From positions 1 through 64,000 of the forward strand of contig NZ_GL883880.1 in assembly GCF_000205165.1 (NCBI RefSeq): a stretch of 64,000 nucleotides of DNA, written 5' to 3'. The notes beneath the pieces were generated by a model, which worked only from the letters and a program-made list of their open reading frames with translations, was not told the origin of the DNA and did no database searches. The DNA comes from Paraprevotella xylaniphila YIT 11841 (GTDB lineage Bacteria; Bacteroidota; Bacteroidia; Bacteroidales; Bacteroidaceae). Position numbers and translations under genes: made by a program. Below are positions 40,991-61,853 of the stretch, piece by piece. How positions within the stretch are numbered: the first letter of the stretch is position 1; every line of letters begins with the position of its first letter.

Positions 40991-43828
40991 CTATATGACG
41001 CTATTTCTTGTAATTTTAATGGACTGGCGTTTGCCCGTAGAAGTAGCGTATAATCCGATACATATCCCTTTGTTCCGAAAGAGGAGACGTATGTGGTTGT
41101 CACCCATTTCGCAGGTTTCCGTTTGCAGAAGCACGCCGGATAACGAGTAAATACGTAATATTCCGGCTTCTTTGCTCTTCAAGTACAACTCTTGCCCGTG
41201 GCAGGAATAGCTGACGATAGGATTTACGGTATACTCTGTTTCGTTCCGACGGTCTTTGATGCCATCAGGGCCGTCCGGTTGTACTTTCCGGATGATGGCG
41301 AAAGGAAATTCCGAAAACACGCTTCTCGTCGTTACGCTTAAAGCCAGGTTGTCGGCATCGGTTTCGAGAAAACCTGAGCCTGCGGAAGAAGAAAGACCGA
41401 TGGCGTACAGGTCTTCATCCGAATATTTGCGGAAGAGATTGAAGGAATGTTTGGAATAATCGTTCTTTGTAGTCAGTGTCCCTTCGTCAGACAAATGTTT
41501 ATTGTTATCCGTTTGGCTGACAAACATGTAACGGTCGCCATAAAGTGGCATGGGACGTATCCTCCACAAAAACGAGCGGTCGTCGGTTTCGTCCAGAGCT
41601 GTGAACGTGGCATCCGTGTTTCGCAAATACCGGCCGGTTTGCGGGTCTTTGATATAAAAACTGTCTTTGGCTTGCGGTTCGAGCGTATTGGATTCATATA
41701 CAGGCAGATTGAAATGCAAGACGGTTTCGGCCTTTGAGCCTGTTTGTGAAACGCGGTGGAACATCAACGTGTATTCCATGCAGGTGTCCAACACTCCGAC
41801 ACACAAGGTATCGTTCAGGTCGGCCACTTTTCCACCCAAATCGTTCAGGTGGAAAGTCAATGTGTCAGCTTGTATGGTGTCTTTGTCGAGTATCCACTTG
41901 TAAATGCGCGTGGAGTTGGCGGACTGGGCAAGCAGGGAGTTCGGCGAGGCGTACAAAGACACGGCCGTGTGGCGTGGCACGGCCAAGGTAGTCCCGCTAT
42001 AGTTTTTATCGTCGCCATACGCAATAAACGGGTCTATTTCCGATACCTCCACGCGGAACGTTTGTTGTAATCGGGCACCGGCCTGATTGGTCATTGTCAC
42101 CCGGTAATAAGCATTCGATGAAACGCTCGGCAGCGTCATCAGATTTTCGTTATGACCCAGTGCATTCCAATTCTGCCCATTGGTACTTTTTTCCCACTTC
42201 CATTCACGCACAGGAGTATCAATATACTCCATCCCAAATGTCAGATCATCATATTTCTTCACGTAAATCAACGTGTCTGTTCCCGTGGTACCGTTCATTT
42301 TATAATAAGGAGTAAAGTTGCCGGTCCATCCCTCCCCTTCCACATGAAGGGCGAACAACTGCGTGTTGCTCACGCCTTTTTCATTGGTATAATGCACACG
42401 GAAGGTACGCGAAGTGTCCAACACGATGTCACGTGTGGAGGAAGTGCATGCCGGGTCATCGTCCCATGCCCATTTACCGGTATCCGTTTCTCCGTCCGGC
42501 AATAGGGCCGTCAGGGTCACGGTCGCCCCTTTGGGGATACAGTTCACGTCAGGCCGGTCGATTTCACGGCCTTCATACGTGATTTTCCCGTTCAGGACCG
42601 TGGGAACCTTAGTCTTGTCCTCCAACGGGTCGAGCGTACACATCAGGGTGCTGAAGCCCAAATGATCGTAGCCGCCGCTGTTACCTCCGCCGAATCCTCC
42701 TCCTGCGTCTATGCCGTTTTCGTTCATTTCGAGCATCTTCCTGGAGTAAGGCACGTCTATCCCCCGTACGTTCTCATAATAATTCACGATACGGGCTTGA
42801 GCCGGCCGGTTAGTACCCCGTGCCCAATCCCCCATCCTCATGAAAGTCCCGTCGCAATTCGTATAAGGACTGTTCGGCAAATCATCCACTCCCGAATTAT
42901 AGGCGTTGACATATTCAAACCCGCATACGATACGGTCGTCCATCAGGGCATAAAAGTCATCGCCTTGGTTGCGTCCCGTACCGCAAAGGTCTGCGGCCAA
43001 CGCCAGTGCCATTTCGGCATGCCCTTGGTCGCGGTTGGATTCCTGCATCTGCCCGAAGTAGCCGAAAGGTCCGCGTTCGTCCGGATGCAGTTTCCAGACC
43101 AAATGATGCAGCGACTCGCCGTAACGGTGGTCTTCCATATACTTATAATATTCCGTGGCTTGGTTGTAGATGAAGACATCGTCGCACAAGATACCGATGC
43201 TCATCGCACACAGCACGTTGCACAAGCCCCAATTCGACCAATAATGGTCGTCTTGTGTCCCGTTGCGTCCTTGCAGGAAACCGATTACCCCGTGGTACCA
43301 CACTTTCAGCATCCATTCTTTGAAGCGTCCGAAGTCCGTGGCATCCCATCCCGGATAGTCGCGCATCAGTTCGGCAGCGTTGGCAAACTGGTAGCCATAC
43401 AGCCCGTATGCCAGACAGGCATTCGTGTCTCCGCTCACCTTCTTGCAGGTCTTGGCCCAAGCATTAAGGATTTGGACGGACTTGTCCGCATACGCCTTAT
43501 CGCCGGATATGTGCCAGACCAACGCACATTGGTAAGCCGTGGCGGCATCCCGGTAAGCCAACTGGTAATTGTCCGGGTCGGGTTCCCAAATCGTCCGGCC
43601 TCCGCGTACGATTTTCTCGACCGGAGCAGCCTTCCAGTCCAAACTGACATGCGGGCTAGTCAGCAGTTTCCTGTAAGCGGAAGCCCAAGGCTCCTCGCCG
43701 ACTTCTACCTTGGCTTTTGTCCGGTTCAGATCGGCCTGCGTATGCAACATGCCGGGATGGATGAAGTTTTGTGCATTCAGCCATAACGAACTGCATAGCG
43801 TCATGACTATCAAGTATCTTTTCTTCAT
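40991..43828 (-). CDS. alginate lyase family (PL38-like) polysaccharide lyase with T9SS-like tail
   Basis: A 945-residue secreted protein. Signal peptide 1-19 (LCSSLWLNAQ). Residues 20-400 are an all-alpha toroid of the alginate lyase family, starting HPGMLHTQADLNRTKAKVE, with NRDQGHAEM near 262, the signature Asn/Arg/His region; this resembles CAZy family PL38 (poly-mannuronate/glucuronan lyases). Beta-sandwich or Ig-like domains follow (about 420-700), then a ricin/RHIM-like stretch (FYIKDPQTGRYLRN). The last 70 residues look like a T9SS sorting tail (RIYSLSGVLLQTET, ending KITR). It diverges from the HTCS gene. Enzyme family is confident; exact substrate is inference. Confidence 0.85.
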   Translation of the reverse strand: MKKRYLIVMTLCSSLWLNAQNFIHPGMLHTQADLNRTKAKVEVGEEPWASAYRKLLTSPHVSLDWKAAPVEKIVRGGRTIWEPDPDNYQLAYRDAATAYQCALVWHISGDKAYADKSVQILNAWAKTCKKVSGDTNACLAYGLYGYQFANAAELMRDYPGWDATDFGRFKEWMLKVWYHGVIGFLQGRNGTQDDHYWSNWGLCNVLCAMSIGILCDDVFIYNQATEYYKYMEDHRYGESLHHLVWKLHPDERGPFGYFGQMQESNRDQGHAEMALALAADLCGTGRNQGDDFYALMDDRIVCGFEYVNAYNSGVDDLPNSPYTNCDGTFMRMGDWARGTNRPAQARIVNYYENVRGIDVPYSRKMLEMNENGIDAGGGFGGGNSGGYDHLGFSTLMCTLDPLEDKTKVPTVLNGKITYEGREIDRPDVNCIPKGATVTLTALLPDGETDTGKWAWDDDPACTSSTRDIVLDTSRTFRVHYTNEKGVSNTQLFALHVEGEGWTGNFTPYYKMNGTTGTDTLIYVKKYDDLTFGMEYIDTPVREWKWEKSTNGQNWNALGHNENLMTLPSVSSNAYYRVTMTNQAGARLQQTFRVEVSEIDPFIAYGDDKNYSGTTLAVPRHTAVSLYASPNSLLAQSANSTRIYKWILDKDTIQADTLTFHLNDLGGKVADLNDTLCVGVLDTCMEYTLMFHRVSQTGSKAETVLHFNLPVYESNTLEPQAKDSFYIKDPQTGRYLRNTDATFTALDETDDRSFLWRIRPMPLYGDRYMFVSQTDNNKHLSDEGTLTTKNDYSKHSFNLFRKYSDEDLYAIGLSSSAGSGFLETDADNLALSVTTRSVFSEFPFAIIRKVQPDGPDGIKDRRNETEYTVNPIVSYSCHGQELYLKSKEAGILRIYSLSGVLLQTETCEMGDNHIRLLFRNKGICIGLYATSTGKRQSIKITRNSVI

Positions 43829-43861: not shown

Positions 43862-44010
43862 GCAGGTAAATACCGTACGGGGACGGATGAAAAAAAGCAT
43901 CTTTTACGTCGTTCTGAACCAAATGCGCCCGAAGGCTGCTTTTCAGCCACGGCGTATGGGAAAATGTCCGAAAAAGACGGCTGATTCAGTACGATGCAAC
44001 AAAACGACCT

Positions 44011-49390: not shown

Positions 49391-51889
49391 CTACTTACAT
49401 TCGCGTTTTATCCTGATAACCGTGAAGGAATAGGCCGGCATTTCATAGGGGAACTTCTCCCCTATTTCCATTGCGCTTTCCACCGGTACGGCATCCTTGT
49501 CGGACGGGCGACCCGAAAGGACGGTCTTCTGCCCTACGGCTTGATGTCCGGCCAACGACGGGATTTCCATGTCCGCCTTGACCGCCACCGGAAGCAGGTT
49601 CACCAATTTCACGACAAGGTCGCCGCTTTCACCGTCCTTCACCACGGAAACGCCCACTCGGCTGCGCACATCATGCCTCCGGTTGTCCACCGTCAGCGTG
49701 GAGGGCAGGTATTCGCTTCCGGTGTTCTGTCCGTACATCTTTTGCACGTAGTAGTCCACAGTGGGTTTCACTTCCGTGTTGTTGAAGTAAATCAAGTCCG
49801 GCCTCCACTGCGTATGCCCCTCCTTGGCCAAGAGCGGAGCGTATGATGTCATGCTCACCACATCGCCGTTGCGCTCCACCGAAGTCAGGAACAAGGCAGC
49901 CGCCAAGGCCGTTTCGATATTGCTCGGCCGTCCCGGGGCATGGGCCGCATACTCTCCCAGATAGACCTTGGACTTGTTGCGGTCGTAGTGGTCGTAGTAA
50001 TCTTGGTTGTAAATGAACCATCCCGGCGTATTGTAATTATGCTCGTCCACCATGGGCAGTTTCAAACGGTCGGCCAAAGCCCATCCTTCCTCATAGTCCG
50101 TGCCTTCGCTGAAAGGCCCCGTCGTGCCGATGACCGTGATTTCGGGATATTTTTCCCGGATGGCCTCATAAATCATCGTAAACCGTTCCGTAAACACGCG
50201 GCTGATGAGGTCTTCGTTGCCCAAACCTATATATTTCAGGTTGAACGGTTCGGGATGTCCGGCCTTGGCCCGTTCGCGTCCCCATCGTGTGGTCTTGGCA
50301 TCGCCGTTGGCGTATTCTATCAAGTCCAACACGTCCTGCACATATTGCCCCATCTCTTCCATCGGGATACCGCCCTGCTGTCCAAGGCTCGTCACAATGT
50401 CCTTGGAATGATGGCTCGGTCCTCCGATGCCTGAGTTCTGGCAGGGCACGCCTGCCGCCACGACCGGTAACGGTTCGGCACCGATGTCCTCGCAGAACTG
50501 GAAATACTCGAAGTAGCCCAAACCGCGCGTCTGGTGGTAGCGCCAGATGTTGGCCGCAGGCTTGCGGGCTTCCAACGGGCCGATGGTTTCTTTCCAATGA
50601 TAGATGTTGTCCACCCCGTCCCCATGGGCCAAGCATCCACCGGGGAAGCGGACGAAGCGCGGACGGATGTCGGCAATGGCCTGAGCCAGGTCGGCACGCA
50701 ACCCGTTCTTCCGTCCCTTGAACGTCTTTTGCGGGAACAGTGAAATCATGTCGAGGGCATACCGTCCGGCAGACTGCGGGATGATGACGAGCCGGGCCTG
50801 CGCGACGGTGGCCGTGGCTTTCAGCACGGCTTCCCGTTTTTTCCAGGTTTTGGAGGACAACTTGACGGTGGTCTCGGCCACGGTCTTTCCCTGTGGGTCG
50901 ACCAGACGCACCACGGTCTTTCCACCTCCCTTTCCGTCCGGCGTACGGGCGAAAAGCGAAAAGTCGTACTTCTCGCCTTCATTCACCGCAATGCCGTCGA
51001 ATCCCGTATTTGTGAAGCTGCCGTCGGGCTGCGCCACGTCGAGCACGGCGTAATGGGGATTGTTGGGATGAACGGGCTGTTCCGTGGACACGTCAAATGT
51101 CATGCTCTTGCCTTCCACCCTCCATGCGTAGCGGCTGTTCCAGTTCTTGTCCTTGTTACCATCGGTTTCGGAGTACTCGAAATCCCGGTTCTGCACCAGT
51201 TCGGCATACAGTCCACCGTCGGCTGCATAATTCAAGTCTTCAAAGAACACACCAATCAAGTCCTCACTGATGGGCTTTGCCCGGCCTTCGTCCACGGTAA
51301 TCCGCGCACTGACCGTTTGCAGTCCGGCAAACCGGGCCGCGTCATGTTCTGCACGTTCCCCGCGTTGGGCGTTGAGGGCAGAACGATATACGCCATGCCG
51401 TTCCAATCCTTTCACTATGCCGTACGGCACCTTCAGTGCAAATCCCGCGATAGTCTTGTCGCCCACTTGCATGGTGTCTGCCACCGGCATACGTGCGTTT
51501 TTCACCTCATGGCGCGATTTCTCGTCTGCCATGAAAAACTCTTGAGGTTTCCACCGTATCAAGTCTGTTGAAGAAGAACTGCCCATCGCGCTGCCGTCCG
51601 GGGTCAAATCCCAGAAGCAATGCCACCGCCCGTCCGTCCGGTCCTGTACCAACTGCGGGCGGTACACGTGTTTCCAAGGACCGAAGTCGCATTTCAGGAA
51701 CACCATGCCTCCGGCCACGTCGTGCCATTGCTCGCGATCCGTGCTCCATACAAGTTGCATGCCGCGCCGCCCGTTGTCGTTCACCGTAGGATACGGAAAA
51801 ACATACACGGAGTCCGGTTGTGCCGCCCACGTAGGGACAACAAAAAGATTGACAAAAGCAATACTTAAATAAATATTATTAAAATTCAT
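49391..51889 (-). CDS. alpha-L-arabinofuranosidase, GH51, with N-terminal partial propeller
   Basis: An 832-residue secreted enzyme that removes arabinofuranosyl groups from arabinan or arabinoxylan. Signal peptide 1-22. Residues 25-185 look like half of a GH43/GH32 five-bladed propeller (MQLVWSTDREQWHDVAGG, RPQLVQDRTDGRWHCFWD, WKPQEF). Residues about 195-390 are a CBM4_9-like sandwich, and about 400-832 the GH51 barrel with the acid/base Glu in IGLGNEDLI (about 557), the nucleophile Glu in VYLGEYAAH (about 643), and the C-terminal beta domain. It is the last gene of the binder-GH43-GH2-GH51 run, 29 bp after the GH2 gene. The partial propeller probably lacks a catalytic site of its own. Confidence 0.93.
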   Translation of the reverse strand: MNFNNIYLSIAFVNLFVVPTWAAQPDSVYVFPYPTVNDNGRRGMQLVWSTDREQWHDVAGGMVFLKCDFGPWKHVYRPQLVQDRTDGRWHCFWDLTPDGSAMGSSSSTDLIRWKPQEFFMADEKSRHEVKNARMPVADTMQVGDKTIAGFALKVPYGIVKGLERHGVYRSALNAQRGERAEHDAARFAGLQTVSARITVDEGRAKPISEDLIGVFFEDLNYAADGGLYAELVQNRDFEYSETDGNKDKNWNSRYAWRVEGKSMTFDVSTEQPVHPNNPHYAVLDVAQPDGSFTNTGFDGIAVNEGEKYDFSLFARTPDGKGGGKTVVRLVDPQGKTVAETTVKLSSKTWKKREAVLKATATVAQARLVIIPQSAGRYALDMISLFPQKTFKGRKNGLRADLAQAIADIRPRFVRFPGGCLAHGDGVDNIYHWKETIGPLEARKPAANIWRYHQTRGLGYFEYFQFCEDIGAEPLPVVAAGVPCQNSGIGGPSHHSKDIVTSLGQQGGIPMEEMGQYVQDVLDLIEYANGDAKTTRWGRERAKAGHPEPFNLKYIGLGNEDLISRVFTERFTMIYEAIREKYPEITVIGTTGPFSEGTDYEEGWALADRLKLPMVDEHNYNTPGWFIYNQDYYDHYDRNKSKVYLGEYAAHAPGRPSNIETALAAALFLTSVERNGDVVSMTSYAPLLAKEGHTQWRPDLIYFNNTEVKPTVDYYVQKMYGQNTGSEYLPSTLTVDNRRHDVRSRVGVSVVKDGESGDLVVKLVNLLPVAVKADMEIPSLAGHQAVGQKTVLSGRPSDKDAVPVESAMEIGEKFPYEMPAYSFTVIRIKRECK

Positions 51890-51918: not shown

Positions 51919-55313
<3,395 letters not shown>

Positions 55314-58300
55314 CTACGGGTCAATCGGGCCGACAGGAGACTTGGAGCGTACGTAACGGACTTCGTAGTCCGCGCTCCGCGTATCGTTTTTAGACCATGT
55401 GAAATAATAGTAACCGTCGCGGTAGAATACATAGGGGGCTTCACTGTAATGCCGGTCGTTGTCGATGTGTATCTTCGTGGTGTTCGGTTTGACGGATGCC
55501 ATGTCGTCATTGAGTTCACACACGGCCATGTAATAGTTGCCCCAGTACAAATAAGTCTTGCCGCTCACGGGGTCAGTGAAAACGTCCGGGTCGATGTTCT
55601 GCCCGCGTTTCATTCCGCAGGGTCGTTCGCGGCTTATCAACGGTTTTCCGCTATCACGGAACGGCCCTTCCGGACGGTCGCCCACAGCCACTCCGATTTG
55701 CCGTTCTGCCGTATAGTAAAAGTAATATTTGTAACTGCCGTCTGTCTGCTTTTTCTCTATGATGCAAGGTGCCCATGCGTTCTTTTTCGCCCAAGACACG
55801 TTTCTCAAATCCAAGACGACGCGTTCTTCTTTCCAAGTTTTCAAGTCGGCAGACGAGAAAGCCTTGAAACTCGTGCCGCCCCAATTCGGAATACCATCCG
55901 TCGTGGGATAAATGTAATATTTCTTAGTCTGTTCGGAATACAGCACTTCCGGGTCTGCATAATAACCGGAGAACAGGGGATTTTTCTGTATGGATGCCGT
56001 GGAGACATATTTCCGTTTGTTCTTCTGCCAGTAAGCTTCAAGCTTGTCGGCCTCTTCTGCGGTCAGATGTACCACAGCCCCATGCTTGGGCGCGTTGAAA
56101 TTTGTGGATTTCATTACGCCTTCGTTGAAACGTCCTAGATTCTTGAACGTGATGAAGTCCGAAGTTTCGGTAAAGGCGAAATTGTGCGGCGTGATGCTGT
56201 ATACGTCGTACATCAGCACCCATTTGTCCTCTCCGAGGCGTTTCCATACCGTGGGAGCCTCACAAGATTTCGGTTCAAAGTCGTACCAACGCGGATCGTA
56301 TTCGTAGCCTCCGTTGATACGATCGGAAACAGCCTGCTTGATACCCGGCTGTCCGTCGTGCGCCACGTAGAAAAGATGGTACTTGTCCCCTACCTTGGTG
56401 ATGTCGCCGTCGATGGCCGAAACCGTTTCGTCCGGGTATTCGTAAAGCAGTTGGGGCAGGCTCTCGATACGGTCGAAATCATCGTTCACATACACGTAAT
56501 ACAGTTTGTTGCGTTCGTTGCGGAAGCGCATGGTGTAGGAAATCATCAGTTTGCCCGCCCGTTCATCGTAGGCAATTTCAGGTGCCCATGCGCAACCTAT
56601 TTCACTCAATCCGGCTGTCAGTTGGTCGAAACGGACGTTGGCGCGTTTCCAGTTCACCAAGTCCCACGACTTCATCAGCACCAGCCCCTTGTTGTTTCCC
56701 CAACCGTACATGTTGCGGTCGCGCTCCCACTCCGTTTCGCGGAAACCGTCACGACGGGCAAATACGTGGAGGTCGGTCATGGCCAAATAGAATGCACCAT
56801 CCGGGCCACGATAGATATAAGGGTCGCGTATCCCTCTTTGGTAAGCAATCGTATCACCGGCTAAGACAGGTTCCCCGTCGTTCAGGGCCGTGAACGTGTA
56901 TCCGTCGCGGCTCAATGCCATGTAGAGCCCGTGCGTTTCGTCCTTGTGGAACACCATCAGGTAGGCACTCAAGTCTTTTTCCTGCGGAACGGCGTTTTTA
57001 TAACGGAACCGGTGGAAAGCCGCTTCACCCTTCCCAATGGAAACCAAGCCTATACGCAAGGCATAGAAACCCTTGTAGGCGTTGTGGTGCATGCCGGACA
57101 CATCGATGCCTTCGGCCAATGTGGTCCATTCCTTTCCGGCCTTTCCAACCAAAATGGAGACGTGGTTGCCTTGGTTCTTTATTCGCACCGTGAACTGTCT
57201 GCCTAACGTGTTGGGCATTTCTGTCTTTTGTCCGGCGTGCCGGTAGATAGTGAATGTCTTGCCGTCCGATACCAGTCCAGCGTATGCTTTTTCGCTATAA
57301 TAAAGCAGGAGTCCGGCTGTATTGTTTTTCCCGACCGTGACTTCAACTTGTGTTTCATAATTCTTGTCTTCCGCAGTAGCGAGCAACAGTCGGCCGTCTG
57401 CTGGAGTCTTGCCTTTGGCTTTCAGCCGCAATGTCCGGTTTTCGAGGGTCACGGCTTTCGGGGCATATTCTTTCCAGAACGTCCATTGTAAGCCCAATAC
57501 CTTCCCCTTGAAGTCATCGGAAAGTTCCAGGCCGTGAGGGATGGGAGCCTCAGTCTTGGGAAGCGTGCCTGTGGATTTGGCACGGCACCATCCGTCTGGC
57601 GTCCACTCGATCGGTTCGATAAGGGTTTGCCGTCCCAACGTATGGTAGCCTTTGGCGTATGCGTGGTACACCACCCACCAGTTTCCGTTTACGTCGTCTA
57701 TCAGTGTGCCGTGCCCTTTAGACCACCAGCTTTCCCTTTCACTGTAAGTATGCACCAACGGGTTGAACGGAGAGTTTTCCCACGGTCCGAGTACGCTTTT
57801 CGAGCGTGCCGTCACGACCATGTGACTGGTGCCCGGTCCGGCAGTTCCGCCTTCGGCCGACGTGAGGTAATAATACCCGTTGTGGTAGTTCAGTTTCGGG
57901 GATTCCAGATACATGCCTTCTGTTCGCCAGTTCCGGGGATAGGGCCAACCGTCGTAGACCTTTTTTACCTCGCCCACCGTAGACAGACCGTCATCGGAGA
58001 GTTGCACGACTTTGCCTTCGGAGAGATACAGGTAACGTTTTCCCTCAGCATCGGCCACATGTCCGGGGTCGATGCCTTTCACCTTTAAATCTATAGGTGT
58101 GCTCCACGGCCCACGGATGTCATCTGCCCATATCACCCAATTCGTCCCTGCGGCCGGATAATAGATATAATACCTATTATTGTATTTCACCAAATCCGGT
58201 GCCATGGCCGAGCCTTCCCATTGTGCCATGGCACGGCATACCGGTTCCCAATGTTCCAAGTCTTGGGAATGCCAGATCAGGAAGCCCGGCGCATAATAAA

Positions 58301-58448
58301 AAGGAGAATGCGTCATGTAGTAATCCTTCCCGTCGCGCAAGATGGAGGGATCGGGATAGTCTCCGGCAAGGATGACTTTGGGAAAGTCCTTCGCTGACGA
58401 ATTCCATACCATGAGAAAGAACAGGAACAATGAAATAACTTTTTTCAT
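55314..58448 (-). CDS. three-domain GH43 glycosidase, truncated by an in-frame TAG
   Basis: The gene would encode about 1120 residues, but TAG at 55314-55316 stops it after 1044. Signal peptide 1-19. Domain 1 (20-310) is GH43 with base Asp D33 (YPDPS) and acid Glu in MYLESPKL, followed by a beta-sandwich (315-500). Domain 2 (515-800) has IRDPY, WAPEI and CEAPTVW. Domain 3 (835 on) has YYADPEV, NIDPDVF and YSEAPYV. Xylosidase or arabinofuranosidase activity is likely. It follows the duplicated binder by 31 bp and precedes GH2 by 44 bp. TAG ends other genes here normally (yigZ, LptF/G, permease), so codon reassignment is unlikely; this is a recent nonsense change or a base error. Confidence 0.88.
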   Translation of the reverse strand: MKKVISLFLFFLMVWNSSAKDFPKVILAGDYPDPSILRDGKDYYMTHSPFYYAPGFLIWHSQDLEHWEPVCRAMAQWEGSAMAPDLVKYNNRYYIYYPAAGTNWVIWADDIRGPWSTPIDLKVKGIDPGHVADAEGKRYLYLSEGKVVQLSDDGLSTVGEVKKVYDGWPYPRNWRTEGMYLESPKLNYHNGYYYLTSAEGGTAGPGTSHMVVTARSKSVLGPWENSPFNPLVHTYSERESWWSKGHGTLIDDVNGNWWVVYHAYAKGYHTLGRQTLIEPIEWTPDGWCRAKSTGTLPKTEAPIPHGLELSDDFKGKVLGLQWTFWKEYAPKAVTLENRTLRLKAKGKTPADGRLLLATAEDKNYETQVEVTVGKNNTAGLLLYYSEKAYAGLVSDGKTFTIYRHAGQKTEMPNTLGRQFTVRIKNQGNHVSILVGKAGKEWTTLAEGIDVSGMHHNAYKGFYALRIGLVSIGKGEAAFHRFRYKNAVPQEKDLSAYLMVFHKDETHGLYMALSRDGYTFTALNDGEPVLAGDTIAYQRGIRDPYIYRGPDGAFYLAMTDLHVFARRDGFRETEWERDRNMYGWGNNKGLVLMKSWDLVNWKRANVRFDQLTAGLSEIGCAWAPEIAYDERAGKLMISYTMRFRNERNKLYYVYVNDDFDRIESLPQLLYEYPDETVSAIDGDITKVGDKYHLFYVAHDGQPGIKQAVSDRINGGYEYDPRWYDFEPKSCEAPTVWKRLGEDKWVLMYDVYSITPHNFAFTETSDFITFKNLGRFNEGVMKSTNFNAPKHGAVVHLTAEEADKLEAYWQKNKRKYVSTASIQKNPLFSGYYADPEVLYSEQTKKYYIYPTTDGIPNWGGTSFKAFSSADLKTWKEERVVLDLRNVSWAKKNAWAPCIIEKKQTDGSYKYYFYYTAERQIGVAVGDRPEGPFRDSGKPLISRERPCGMKRGQNIDPDVFTDPVSGKTYLYWGNYYMAVCELNDDMASVKPNTTKIHIDNDRHYSEAPYVFYRDGYYYFTWSKNDTRSADYEVRYVRSKSPVGPIDP

Positions 58449-58479: not shown

Positions 58480-61400
58480 TTATTTAACAATATACTTTTT
58501 ACCATCTACGATATAGATGCCTTTACGCAATCCCCCCAACGCATCCGCATGTTTCACGCTCTGGCGAACCATGCGTCCGGCCAGGTCGAATACATCCACT
58601 TCGTCCTTTTCATCAGGATTTCCATTTGAAATACCGTGGATATTATCCCCCTTGTTCTGTCCGACATAATAGAGGCGGAAGTTGTCTGCCCACCAGTATT
58701 GCCCGTTGCCTCCCACGACTCCGGTTCCCCGTACACCGATGACTACCGTACCGTTTTCCACATACACCTCCGGGATGACCGTGGTCGTGGAAAGTGCCCC
58801 TTGGGCTACGTCCCATTTGCCCTTATCCCCATTGAAAGGCGCATCCGTGAAAACGCTGTCCGAATACACATAGACCGTACTATCAGCTCCTGTACCACTT
58901 TCAACAGTTTCAATATCAATTTGGCGTGTCAAGGCAAACAGTTGGATAAGTTCAGGCTGTTTTGTGCAATAAGTTGCGGCTTCTACACGATAAGCACCGT
59001 CTGGTAAAGCCACTTTACCTTCTTGGTTTCCCATATTGCCCAACACTTGGGAATAAACATTGGGTGTGCCGATATTATGTGCGGCATTTCCGGACCAACT
59101 CCAACAACTCAGCCATGTATCACCTGATAACTGGTCGGTTCTGGCCGGAGAATCCGCAGTACTCGTGCACTCCCAACCGTTGACGAGGGTGTTTATAGGG
59201 GAGTCGTTTTCATCCGTCGCGTCTTGATAGACATTCGGGTTCACAATGAAACTGGTCATATCCAACGGATGATCTACACTCACTTCTGCCAATACTTCCG
59301 GAGTCATTGCTTCCACGCATGCCATCTTCAAAGCCTCCGTATTCATGTCGGCATCGATTTCGTCGAAATCATCGTTTTTCAATAATTCCACCACAGCCTT
59401 ATAGGCTTCATTATCAGACAAACCACCGATTTGGTCTGCCAAGGTTTTGGCTTTGGCCATAGGATAGCACAAAGCTATGGAGGCTCTTAAAGTTTGCATA
59501 CAGCCGTTAAGGGTTTCTATTTTGGTCTTAATTCTTTCATCCAAATAGTTATCCCAACTCATGTCTTCGGCATAAACCATAGCGTCTTCCAAAGCAACCG
59601 AGAAATCAGCCGTAGGTTTAGGCTGGGCGTATGCAAGCCCGTCTCTTATCTGGGCATCCAAAGCAGAACCTTCGCTTAACAGCGGTGTGATGGTCTTATA
59701 GTGCTTTATGATACTGTCAGCTTCTGCATTCAAATCATCCAAGTCTTCAATAGCCATTTTAAGTTCCTCTACGGTGGCATGTCCTATCAATGACGGATAA
59801 CCTTCCTGCTCATCCAAAGCAATTCCATAAGTATCGCTGTCGTCAATTCCTATTTCTACTATCACCCCATGCTTTGAATATGCTGAATCCAAACGGACTT
59901 GTAAGCGGTCGCGGTAGGCACTGATTACATCTTTCTTTATGTAATAAAGGCGGAAATTATCCGCATTCCAATCCTTTCCGTTCCCGGTTACGGGGCCGTC
60001 GCAAACGACACCGATGTACAGTTTACCGTCACGTACCTCAAAACTGGACACTTCGGTCGTGGTACTGAATGTCTCGCTGGCGTTGTCATAAAGTGCCTTG
60101 TCAGCATTCACCTCGGCAAAAGCAAAATCCATACTGTCGGTAGAGGCATACAAATGCACACTGGACGGTTCCGTATTGGTCCACGTGGCGGCTTTCAGTG
60201 TATACAGGCCGTCCGGTAGCTTGACGGCACCATCCGAATCGCCTCCTATCAGTTGGCTGTAATTGGATCCCGTAAGGCGGCTTCCTGTCCAACTGTTACA
60301 TATCAATCCTTTGTTACCTGTGCCTTCCGGAGTGGTATACCATTTTCCATCGGCACTCCCTTTCTGGCACTTCCAACCCTCAGGCGGTGTCATTTCAGAC
60401 GTTTTTTGGTAAATATTGGGATTGGTGATGAAACTGGTAAGTTCTATCGGATTCTCATCAGAAGCTCCTTCCAAAAATTCCTCTGTCATGGCCGGGAGAC
60501 ATACTGCATTCAGCGAAGAAGTCGCAGCAGCGGCTACATCATACGTAATTTCTTCCTTACCGGAGAGCAAAGTTTCCACTTGGGCATAAGCTTCGTTGCC
60601 TTCCAATCCACCTATCCTGTCGGCCAAATCCTTTGCCTTTTGCAGGGAATATGCCAAACTGATGAACGTAGTGGCTTTCGCCGTGGCGGCTTCCATATCG
60701 GCAATACCTTGTTCCACACCGTCTTTCACTTCGTTCAATGTAGATAGTTGTAATATGCTTTGGGCCGCTTCAATTCCATTTTTCAAGTCCGCCCTCACGG
60801 CATCTGCAACCTGATAAACACCGCTTTCCATTTTGCCGTATATATCCTGTGCCCTTGCGATGCTGTTACGTAAAGTTGCCCCATGGGTACACAAGGTTTG
60901 GGCCAAAGCCGTATGCTCTTCTATAATGACGGTAGCTTGTGCGATTTCGCTTTCAGGGGTGGAAGCATTATATTCCTTATACTTATCGATTATCGGTGAC
61001 AATTCTTGAGAAGCTGTAATCCCCAAGACCTGAAGAGAATCCTGCAGGAACTCCAACTTGTTGAGCTTTACGGCAAAAGCATCGAAAGCCGTACCTTCAA
61101 TGTACAGTTTAAAATTGTCCCAACAAGTCCATGTCCCTCCGGCATTGGTGGTAATGGCGATACCCATTAGCATTTCCTTCCCTTCGTTCACGGTGAAAGT
61201 AAGTTCGTTCCAATAACTTTCCGGATATTTTTCACAATAGGCATGCATGCCTTCCATCCCGTCCGGCCATCCGTTTCTTTGGTTTGCCACGCTCCCATCT
61301 TTCGCTTCGCTATAAAGTGATTTCATTTTTACAGAATCCGTCCCGGCAAACAAGTAAGCCTGAATGACCTCCGTCCCGGCTTCATAACCGGCACCGTTGT

Positions 61401-61725
61401 CATTTCCACCCGCACGGTAAAAACCTTGCACTGCCAATTTGTATTTTCCGGCTTTCAGGCCCATGACTTTTTGGGAGGCCGAATTTTGTGATTGGTAAAG
61501 CTCTGCATTCTGGAACGTTGCATTTACCGCAGGAAGTATGGTTCCGGATTCCCACCCTTCGTTCGTACCGGTGGAGAAATCTGCGTTCACGATGTACGTA
61601 TCTGTTACATCAATCCAATTTTGCGCGGAAAGCATGCCGCTGACGGCCAATGCCATGGCAAAAGTAGCTATCCCTCGCCGTGTACCCTGCAAAGGGCTAC
61701 TCTTAAAAAAGTCTTTTTTCTTCAT
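58480..61725 (-). CDS. large secreted protein with duplicated helix-plus-sandwich unit and T9SS-like tail
   Basis: A 1081-residue secreted protein of no named family that I recognise. Signal peptide about 1-35. A beta-sandwich domain (about 40-215; DTYIVNADFSTGTNEGW, WDNFKLYIEG) is followed by helical regions. A unit of about 250 residues then occurs twice (about 358-600 and 748-1020): a helical part with ADRIGGLEGNEAY or ADQIGGLSDNEAY, then a sandwich opening TSFITNPNIYQ or TSFIVNPNVYQ and closing WNADNFRLYYI or WWADNFRLYYV. The sequence ends FDLAGRMVRQ...RKGIYIVDGKKYIVK, a short T9SS-like tail. As first gene of the GH43-GH2-GH51 run it is probably a surface glycan-binding protein. ATG 61725 is chosen. 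Confidence 0.75.
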   Translation of the reverse strand: MKKKDFFKSSPLQGTRRGIATFAMALAVSGMLSAQNWIDVTDTYIVNADFSTGTNEGWESGTILPAVNATFQNAELYQSQNSASQKVMGLKAGKYKLAVQGFYRAGGNDNGAGYEAGTEVIQAYLFAGTDSVKMKSLYSEAKDGSVANQRNGWPDGMEGMHAYCEKYPESYWNELTFTVNEGKEMLMGIAITTNAGGTWTCWDNFKLYIEGTAFDAFAVKLNKLEFLQDSLQVLGITASQELSPIIDKYKEYNASTPESEIAQATVIIEEHTALAQTLCTHGATLRNSIARAQDIYGKMESGVYQVADAVRADLKNGIEAAQSILQLSTLNEVKDGVEQGIADMEAATAKATTFISLAYSLQKAKDLADRIGGLEGNEAYAQVETLLSGKEEITYDVAAAATSSLNAVCLPAMTEEFLEGASDENPIELTSFITNPNIYQKTSEMTPPEGWKCQKGSADGKWYTTPEGTGNKGLICNSWTGSRLTGSNYSQLIGGDSDGAVKLPDGLYTLKAATWTNTEPSSVHLYASTDSMDFAFAEVNADKALYDNASETFSTTTEVSSFEVRDGKLYIGVVCDGPVTGNGKDWNADNFRLYYIKKDVISAYRDRLQVRLDSAYSKHGVIVEIGIDDSDTYGIALDEQEGYPSLIGHATVEELKMAIEDLDDLNAEADSIIKHYKTITPLLSEGSALDAQIRDGLAYAQPKPTADFSVALEDAMVYAEDMSWDNYLDERIKTKIETLNGCMQTLRASIALCYPMAKAKTLADQIGGLSDNEAYKAVVELLKNDDFDEIDADMNTEALKMACVEAMTPEVLAEVSVDHPLDMTSFIVNPNVYQDATDENDSPINTLVNGWECTSTADSPARTDQLSGDTWLSCWSWSGNAAHNIGTPNVYSQVLGNMGNQEGKVALPDGAYRVEAATYCTKQPELIQLFALTRQIDIETVESGTGADSTVYVYSDSVFTDAPFNGDKGKWDVAQGALSTTTVIPEVYVENGTVVIGVRGTGVVGGNGQYWWADNFRLYYVGQNKGDNIHGISNGNPDEKDEVDVFDLAGRMVRQSVKHADALGGLRKGIYIVDGKKYIVK

Positions 61726-61853
61726 AACGAAATTCAAGGTTCTATTAGTTTTACCGTAAGACGCAGCCGAACCGATATAACTGCGAGACCGGACTGTTTT
61801 CTAGATAGTTTTATATATAGGACGAATGATGGGATGAAAATACCTAATTGGAC

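What the first reader, a model, noticed from the sequence alone, without database searches (positions are those of the whole stretch)
55314..55316. In-frame amber codon inside a three-domain GH43 gene
The reading frame stays open for 76 codons on both sides of the TAG, and the downstream part has clear GH43 end motifs (TGHQS, EWYIVYHRF). The stop removes a conserved His and the last propeller blade of domain 3. Three explanations fit: a recent nonsense mutation, stop read-through, or a base error.
Basis: partly seen in the sequence, partly recalled or inferred. Interest (0 to 1): 0.6.

Follow-up and report, generated by a model that had tools for sequence, protein, structure and literature searches.

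The report
Recent nonsense mutation in a hemicellulase
One copy of a large gut-bacterial plant-fibre-degrading enzyme gene carries a single early stop codon that cuts off its last 77 codons, while every relative examined has an ordinary amino-acid codon there, so this is most likely an ordinary recent loss-of-function mutation of one domain.

Summary
A TAG lies at 55314-55316 (minus strand), in frame inside a 1,121-codon glycosidase gene, and the frame then stays open for 76 codons to a TAA at 55083-55085. Three things show this is not chance. The tail matches the end of Pfam GH43. It is almost identical to the gene of Paraprevotella clara (2 amino-acid differences in 76 residues, dN/dS about 0.04). 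The same three-domain gene is open in all eight fusion homologues found. At the TAG codon the relatives have Ser (TCG, TCC or TCA) or Ala (GCT), never a stop. Of the matches to this domain listed from 301 family genomes, only the window copy carries a stop. Programmed read-through is not supported: no relative has the TAG, no CUA-anticodon tRNA was found, RF1 is present, and TAG ends other genes in the window. The best reading is a young single-base nonsense mutation (TCG to TAG) that removes the last propeller blade and an invariant His of domain 3. Domain 1, its sandwich domain and domain 2 stay intact, a layout that many relatives have naturally. A base error cannot be excluded without reads. 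The finding is ordinary.

The parts
55083..58448 (-). three-domain glycosidase gene, from likely start ATG (58446-58448) to original TAA (55083-55085), interrupted by one TAG
   Evidence: Similarity to P. clara starts at this ATG and runs to the TAA, 94.3% identity over 1121 residues with one stop; codon alignment
55314..55316 (-). in-frame TAG; sense codon (Ser or Ala) in all eight aligned three-domain homologues
57588..58382 (-). domain 1, GH43 (PF04616), intact
   Evidence: 289 bits, no stop inside
56997..57521 (-). GH43_C2 concanavalin-like sandwich (PF17851), intact
   Evidence: 46.2 bits
55986..56978 (-). domain 2, distant GH43/GH32-like propeller, intact (boundaries approximate)
   Evidence: 28.7 bits to PF04616, below cut-off; 1.1% nonsynonymous divergence from P. 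clara
55107..55985 (-). domain 3, GH43, interrupted by the TAG; closest solved relative 3qz4 (BT_3675)
   Evidence: 208.4 bits with 1 TAG inside; phmmer E 6.9e-112 for the P. clara copy
55086..55313 (-). 76-codon tail of domain 3 lost from the truncated product (last blade, invariant His)
51919..55068 (-). downstream neighbour: GH2 beta-galactosidase-like gene, intact (likely start ATG at 55038)
   Evidence: Pfam GH2 domains; intact against P. clara
49391..51889 (-). second downstream neighbour: BT_3657-like N-terminal plus alpha-L-arabinofuranosidase

Best explanation
A recent single-base nonsense mutation, Ser TCG to TAG, in a secreted multi-domain hemicellulase gene of a Paraprevotella species close to P. 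clara. Translation ends after about 1,044 residues. Domain 1 (beta-xylosidase/arabinofuranosidase-like GH43 with its C2 sandwich) and domain 2 are made in full. Domain 3 keeps the regions expected to hold its catalytic carboxylates but loses its last propeller blade and an invariant His, so it is most likely inactive and may be misfolded (inferred). The loss is tolerable because relatives commonly have only domains 1-2, and because this genome also holds an intact domain 1-2 paralogue and an intact single-domain homologue of domain 3. Shown here: the stop, sense codons in relatives, the intact downstream frame under past purifying selection, and the paralogues. Inferred: loss of activity, tolerance, and that the base is real.
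For: P. clara (G001, L006/L057; 94% protein identity) and the Paraprevotella MAG G011 (L007/L058; 80%) have TCG at this codon; six other three-domain homologues have TCA, TCC, TCG or GCT. Of the domain-3 matches listed from 301 genomes of the family, only the window copy has a stop. Since the split from P. clara the tail shows 2 nonsynonymous against 13 synonymous differences, dN/dS about 0.035. About 28 nonsynonymous changes would be expected if the tail had been unconstrained over the whole branch, so the stop is younger than roughly 17-22% of that branch (rough). Loss has a natural precedent: many relatives end after domain 2 and the own genome has paralogues at C82:162602-164975 and C82:92546-93460. 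It is isolated: 33 P. clara ORFs aligned to the window show no other interruption inside a gene, and 1 of 38 GH43, 0 of 32 Plug and 0 of 16 HAD matches in the genome contain a stop.
Against: No reads and no second strain were available, so a base error is not excluded. Low dN/dS in the tail is also what functional read-through would give, though a young mutation explains it as well. There is no sign of relaxed selection in domain 3 (8 window-lineage against 7 P. clara-lineage changes before the stop); decay has not followed, or has not had time to follow.
Confidence: 0.78

Rival explanations
1. Sequencing or assembly base error: the real codon is sense and the gene is intact.
For: A single substitution in an otherwise perfect frame with a conserved tail is also how an error looks; no other interrupted gene was seen among 33 compared ORFs, and domain 3 shows no decay.
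Against: The genome is good quality (100% complete, 0.29% contamination) and no other error-like frame breaks were seen in the window. Real nonsense alleles are common in bacterial genomes (general knowledge).
Confidence: 0.16
2. Functional read-through or suppression at the TAG gives some full-length enzyme.
For: The tail is conserved, and the codon position tolerates different residues (Ser or Ala here), so an inserted residue would probably be harmless. Gut phages that recode TAG with predicted suppressor tRNAs exist in Bacteroidetes hosts (PMC9523058).
Against: No relative has a stop here. None of the tRNA genes found has a CUA anticodon. RF1 is present over the curated cut-off. TAG also ends other window ORFs, e.g. 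40991-43828 and 49391-51889, both intact against P. clara.
Confidence: 0.04
3. Adaptive truncation: loss of domain 3 is selected and the shorter protein is the functional form.
For: Proteins with domains 1-2 only are common in relatives.
Against: Natural two-domain forms end at the domain 2/3 boundary (about residue 807-822), not more than 200 residues into domain 3; the product keeps most of a broken propeller. No population data.
Confidence: 0.02

Closest known systems
P. clara YIT 11840 three-domain gene (L057, NZ_JH376642.1)
   Same: same domains, same neighbouring genes, 94% protein identity
   Different: sense codon TCG where the window has TAG; full length
BT_3675 (PDB 3qz4), GH43, titled endo-1,4-beta-xylanase D
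   Same: whole of domain 3, E 6.9e-112 by sequence; best structural match (TM 0.74)
   Different: stand-alone complete domain
Two-domain homologues (e.g. Paraprevotella L080, B. ndongoniae L065) and split neighbours (B. rodentium L074, Flavobacterium L072, L073)
   Same: domains 1-2 without domain 3, or with domain 3 as an adjacent gene
   Different: natural ends lie at the domain 2/3 boundary, not inside domain 3
TAG-recoding crAss-like gut phages (PMC9523058)
   Same: in-frame TAG in a Bacteroidetes-associated sequence
   Different: there many genes are recoded and suppressor tRNAs are predicted; here one chromosomal gene and no such tRNA

Membership tests
nonsense-mutated gene (pseudogene allele) | premature stop in an otherwise homologous frame | tested here: met
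nonsense-mutated gene (pseudogene allele) | orthologues have a sense codon at the site | tested here: met
   seven full-length homologues from named genomes plus G258; family survey
nonsense-mutated gene (pseudogene allele) | base confirmed by reads or further strains | not testable with these tools
   no reads and no second strain held
nonsense-mutated gene (pseudogene allele) | loss of function of the cut domain | not testable with these tools
   inferred from loss of the last blade and an invariant His
programmed stop-codon read-through | stop conserved at the same place in relatives | tested here: not met
TAG recoding by suppressor tRNA | tRNA with CUA anticodon in the genome | tested here: not met
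   55 tRNA matches, anticodons read, none CUA; the draft set may lack a few, as no tRNA-Ile(GAU) was seen
TAG recoding by suppressor tRNA | RF1 lost or altered, TAG avoided as terminator | tested here: not met
   RF1 455 bits over cut-off; TAG ends 5 of 36 long window ORFs, this one included
glycoside hydrolase family 43 (domain 3) | complete GH43 domain in the encoded product | tested here: not met
   full domain (208 bits) only if the TAG is read through; the product as encoded lacks the end of the profile, positions 231-288

The most novel reading that the evidence does not exclude
The TAG is translated at some rate, giving two forms of a secreted hemicellulase: a shorter one with domains 1-2 and a longer one with an active third GH43 domain.
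Probability: 0.03. Interest if true: 0.55.

Novelty: new member of a known kind. Interest (0 to 1): 0.1.

Why it matters
Little beyond this genome. An annotator should mark the gene as truncated in domain 3 and should not count that domain as an active GH43. The locus is a small, clean example of how a fused extra domain in a redundant polysaccharide-degrading gene set can be lost by one mutation.

Tried and rejected
Conserved read-through was rejected: no relative has the stop. A suppressor tRNA was sought and not found. A natural gene boundary at the TAG was rejected: the split relatives break at the domain 2/3 boundary. General gene decay in the window was rejected: no other gene is interrupted. 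The one other in-frame stop (near 43982) lies upstream of the likely start of the 43994-48208 gene. Relaxed selection in domain 3 was tested by polarised counts and not seen. A DNA pattern scan of viral contigs for the same site found nothing. The AlphaFold model of domain 3 is of middling quality (mean pLDDT 65) and is used only to place strands. A stop reported in L086 and two in L069 proved to lie at or after the natural end of their two-domain genes.

Full report
What is there. On the minus strand the window holds a gene whose frame runs from an ATG at 58505, or more likely the ATG at 58448 in front of a signal peptide (MKKVISLFLFFLMVWNSSA), where similarity to P. clara begins. It reaches a TAG at 55314-55316. 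Reading on, the same frame is open for 76 codons to TAA at 55083-55085. The tail alone is recognised by Pfam GH43 at profile positions 231-288 (43.1 bits, cut-off 32.2).

Domains. Domain 1 is GH43 (289 bits), followed by the GH43_C2 sandwich. By sequence these two resemble solved beta-xylosidases and arabinofuranosidases (1yrz, 6ms3, BoGH43A). Domain 2 is only a distant relative (28.7 bits to GH43, below cut-off; weak GH32 match). Domain 3 is GH43 (208 bits with the TAG inside), closest to PDB 3qz4, BT_3675 (fold match TM 0.74). Downstream are a GH2 beta-galactosidase-like gene and an alpha-L-arabinofuranosidase, so this is a hemicellulose-degradation locus (inference).

Relatives. G001 has a copy with 94% protein identity, and the same protein lies in Paraprevotella clara YIT 11840 (L057). 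A Paraprevotella MAG (G011 = L058) has 80%. Both read TCG (Ser) at the TAG codon. Bacteroides and Niastella copies read TCA, TCC, TCG or GCT. All eight three-domain homologues from the named genomes (L057-L064, one of them cut at its front by the contig end) are open through domain 3. In a search of 301 genomes of the family, every other listed domain-3 match has no stop inside; the window copy has one TAG. The site itself is variable, so the stop does not replace a conserved residue. It cuts off conserved ones: H253, H270 and R271 of the domain alignment are invariant in 24 sequences. A moderate-confidence model places the stop in a loop, with the last five strands beyond it.

Age and selection. 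Between window and P. clara, dN/dS is 0.10 (domain 1), 0.12 (C2), 0.03 (domain 2), 0.11 (domain 3 before the stop) and 0.035 (tail). Polarised with G011 and G258, window-lineage and P. clara-lineage amino-acid changes in domain 3 before the stop are 8 and 7. So no decay is visible. If the tail had been free of constraint along the whole window branch, about 28 nonsynonymous changes would be expected; 1 or 2 are seen, which puts the stop in roughly the last fifth of that branch or later (a rough bound that assumes neutrality after the stop).

Tests of read-through. 55 tRNA matches were found in the genome; their anticodons include no CUA, UUA or UCA. The set is not quite complete (no tRNA-Ile(GAU) was seen). 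RF1 is present over its curated cut-off. TAG ends 5 of 36 long window ORFs, this one included, and two of the others were checked as intact against P. clara. Recoding of TAG is known in gut phages of Bacteroidetes with predicted suppressor tRNAs (PMC9523058), but nothing of that kind is seen here.

Base rate in this genome. Of 33 P. clara ORFs aligned to the window, only this one is interrupted inside the gene. Among GH43, Plug and HAD domains in the genome, 1 of 86 matches contains a stop, and it is this one.

Why the loss may be tolerated. Many relatives have only domains 1-2 (L065 and others), among them a Paraprevotella paralogue, and the own genome has such a copy at C82:162602-164975. 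It also has an intact stand-alone domain-3 homologue at C82:92546-93460. In Flavobacterium and B. rodentium domain 3 is a separate gene directly downstream. So domain 3 is an accessory that joins and leaves, but the natural boundary is more than 200 residues before the TAG. The mutation also lengthens the untranslated gap before the GH2 gene from about 44 to about 275 nt, which could reduce its expression by polarity (inference, untested).

Verdict. A real, in-frame amber codon, most simply a young nonsense mutation; a base error is the main rival. The species is a Paraprevotella close to P. clara, perhaps P. xylaniphila (inference, not tested).

Noticed in passing
58480-61737: Upstream neighbour (1,085 aa, no Pfam match over cut-off, weak Por secretion tail at 13.3 bits) is only 63% identical to its P. 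clara counterpart, while the other aligned window genes are 88-100%; three related long genes lie elsewhere in the genome (C61 twice, C13). A fast-evolving, probably surface protein.
   Followed up: partly
L156:68-141 (G000:C18:6017-6090): A low-scoring tRNA-like gene (33.5 bits) with an unassignable four-base anticodon 'ggtt' in ARAGORN; possibly a degenerate tRNA or attachment-site remnant.
   Followed up: partly
55617-55682 (residues 923-944 of the gene): A cluster of five window-lineage amino-acid changes (A923G, G939S, K940R, L942R, G944C) in domain 3 before the stop; domain 3 before the stop has high synonymous divergence (dS 0.56 against about 0.3 elsewhere); possibly a small recombination tract.
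   Followed up: partly
43964-43994: Compared with P. clara, an in-frame TGA lies near the front of the longest ORF of the 43994-48208 gene; homology suggests the true start is further downstream, so this is a start-site matter, not an interruption.
   Followed up: yes
L072:8376-8523, L073, L074: Domains 1-2 and domain 3 are two adjacent genes in Flavobacterium and B. rodentium, with a new signal-like N-terminus on the domain-3 gene, but one fused gene in Paraprevotella, several Bacteroides and Niastella: a gene fusion or fission at the domain 2/3 boundary.
   Followed up: partly
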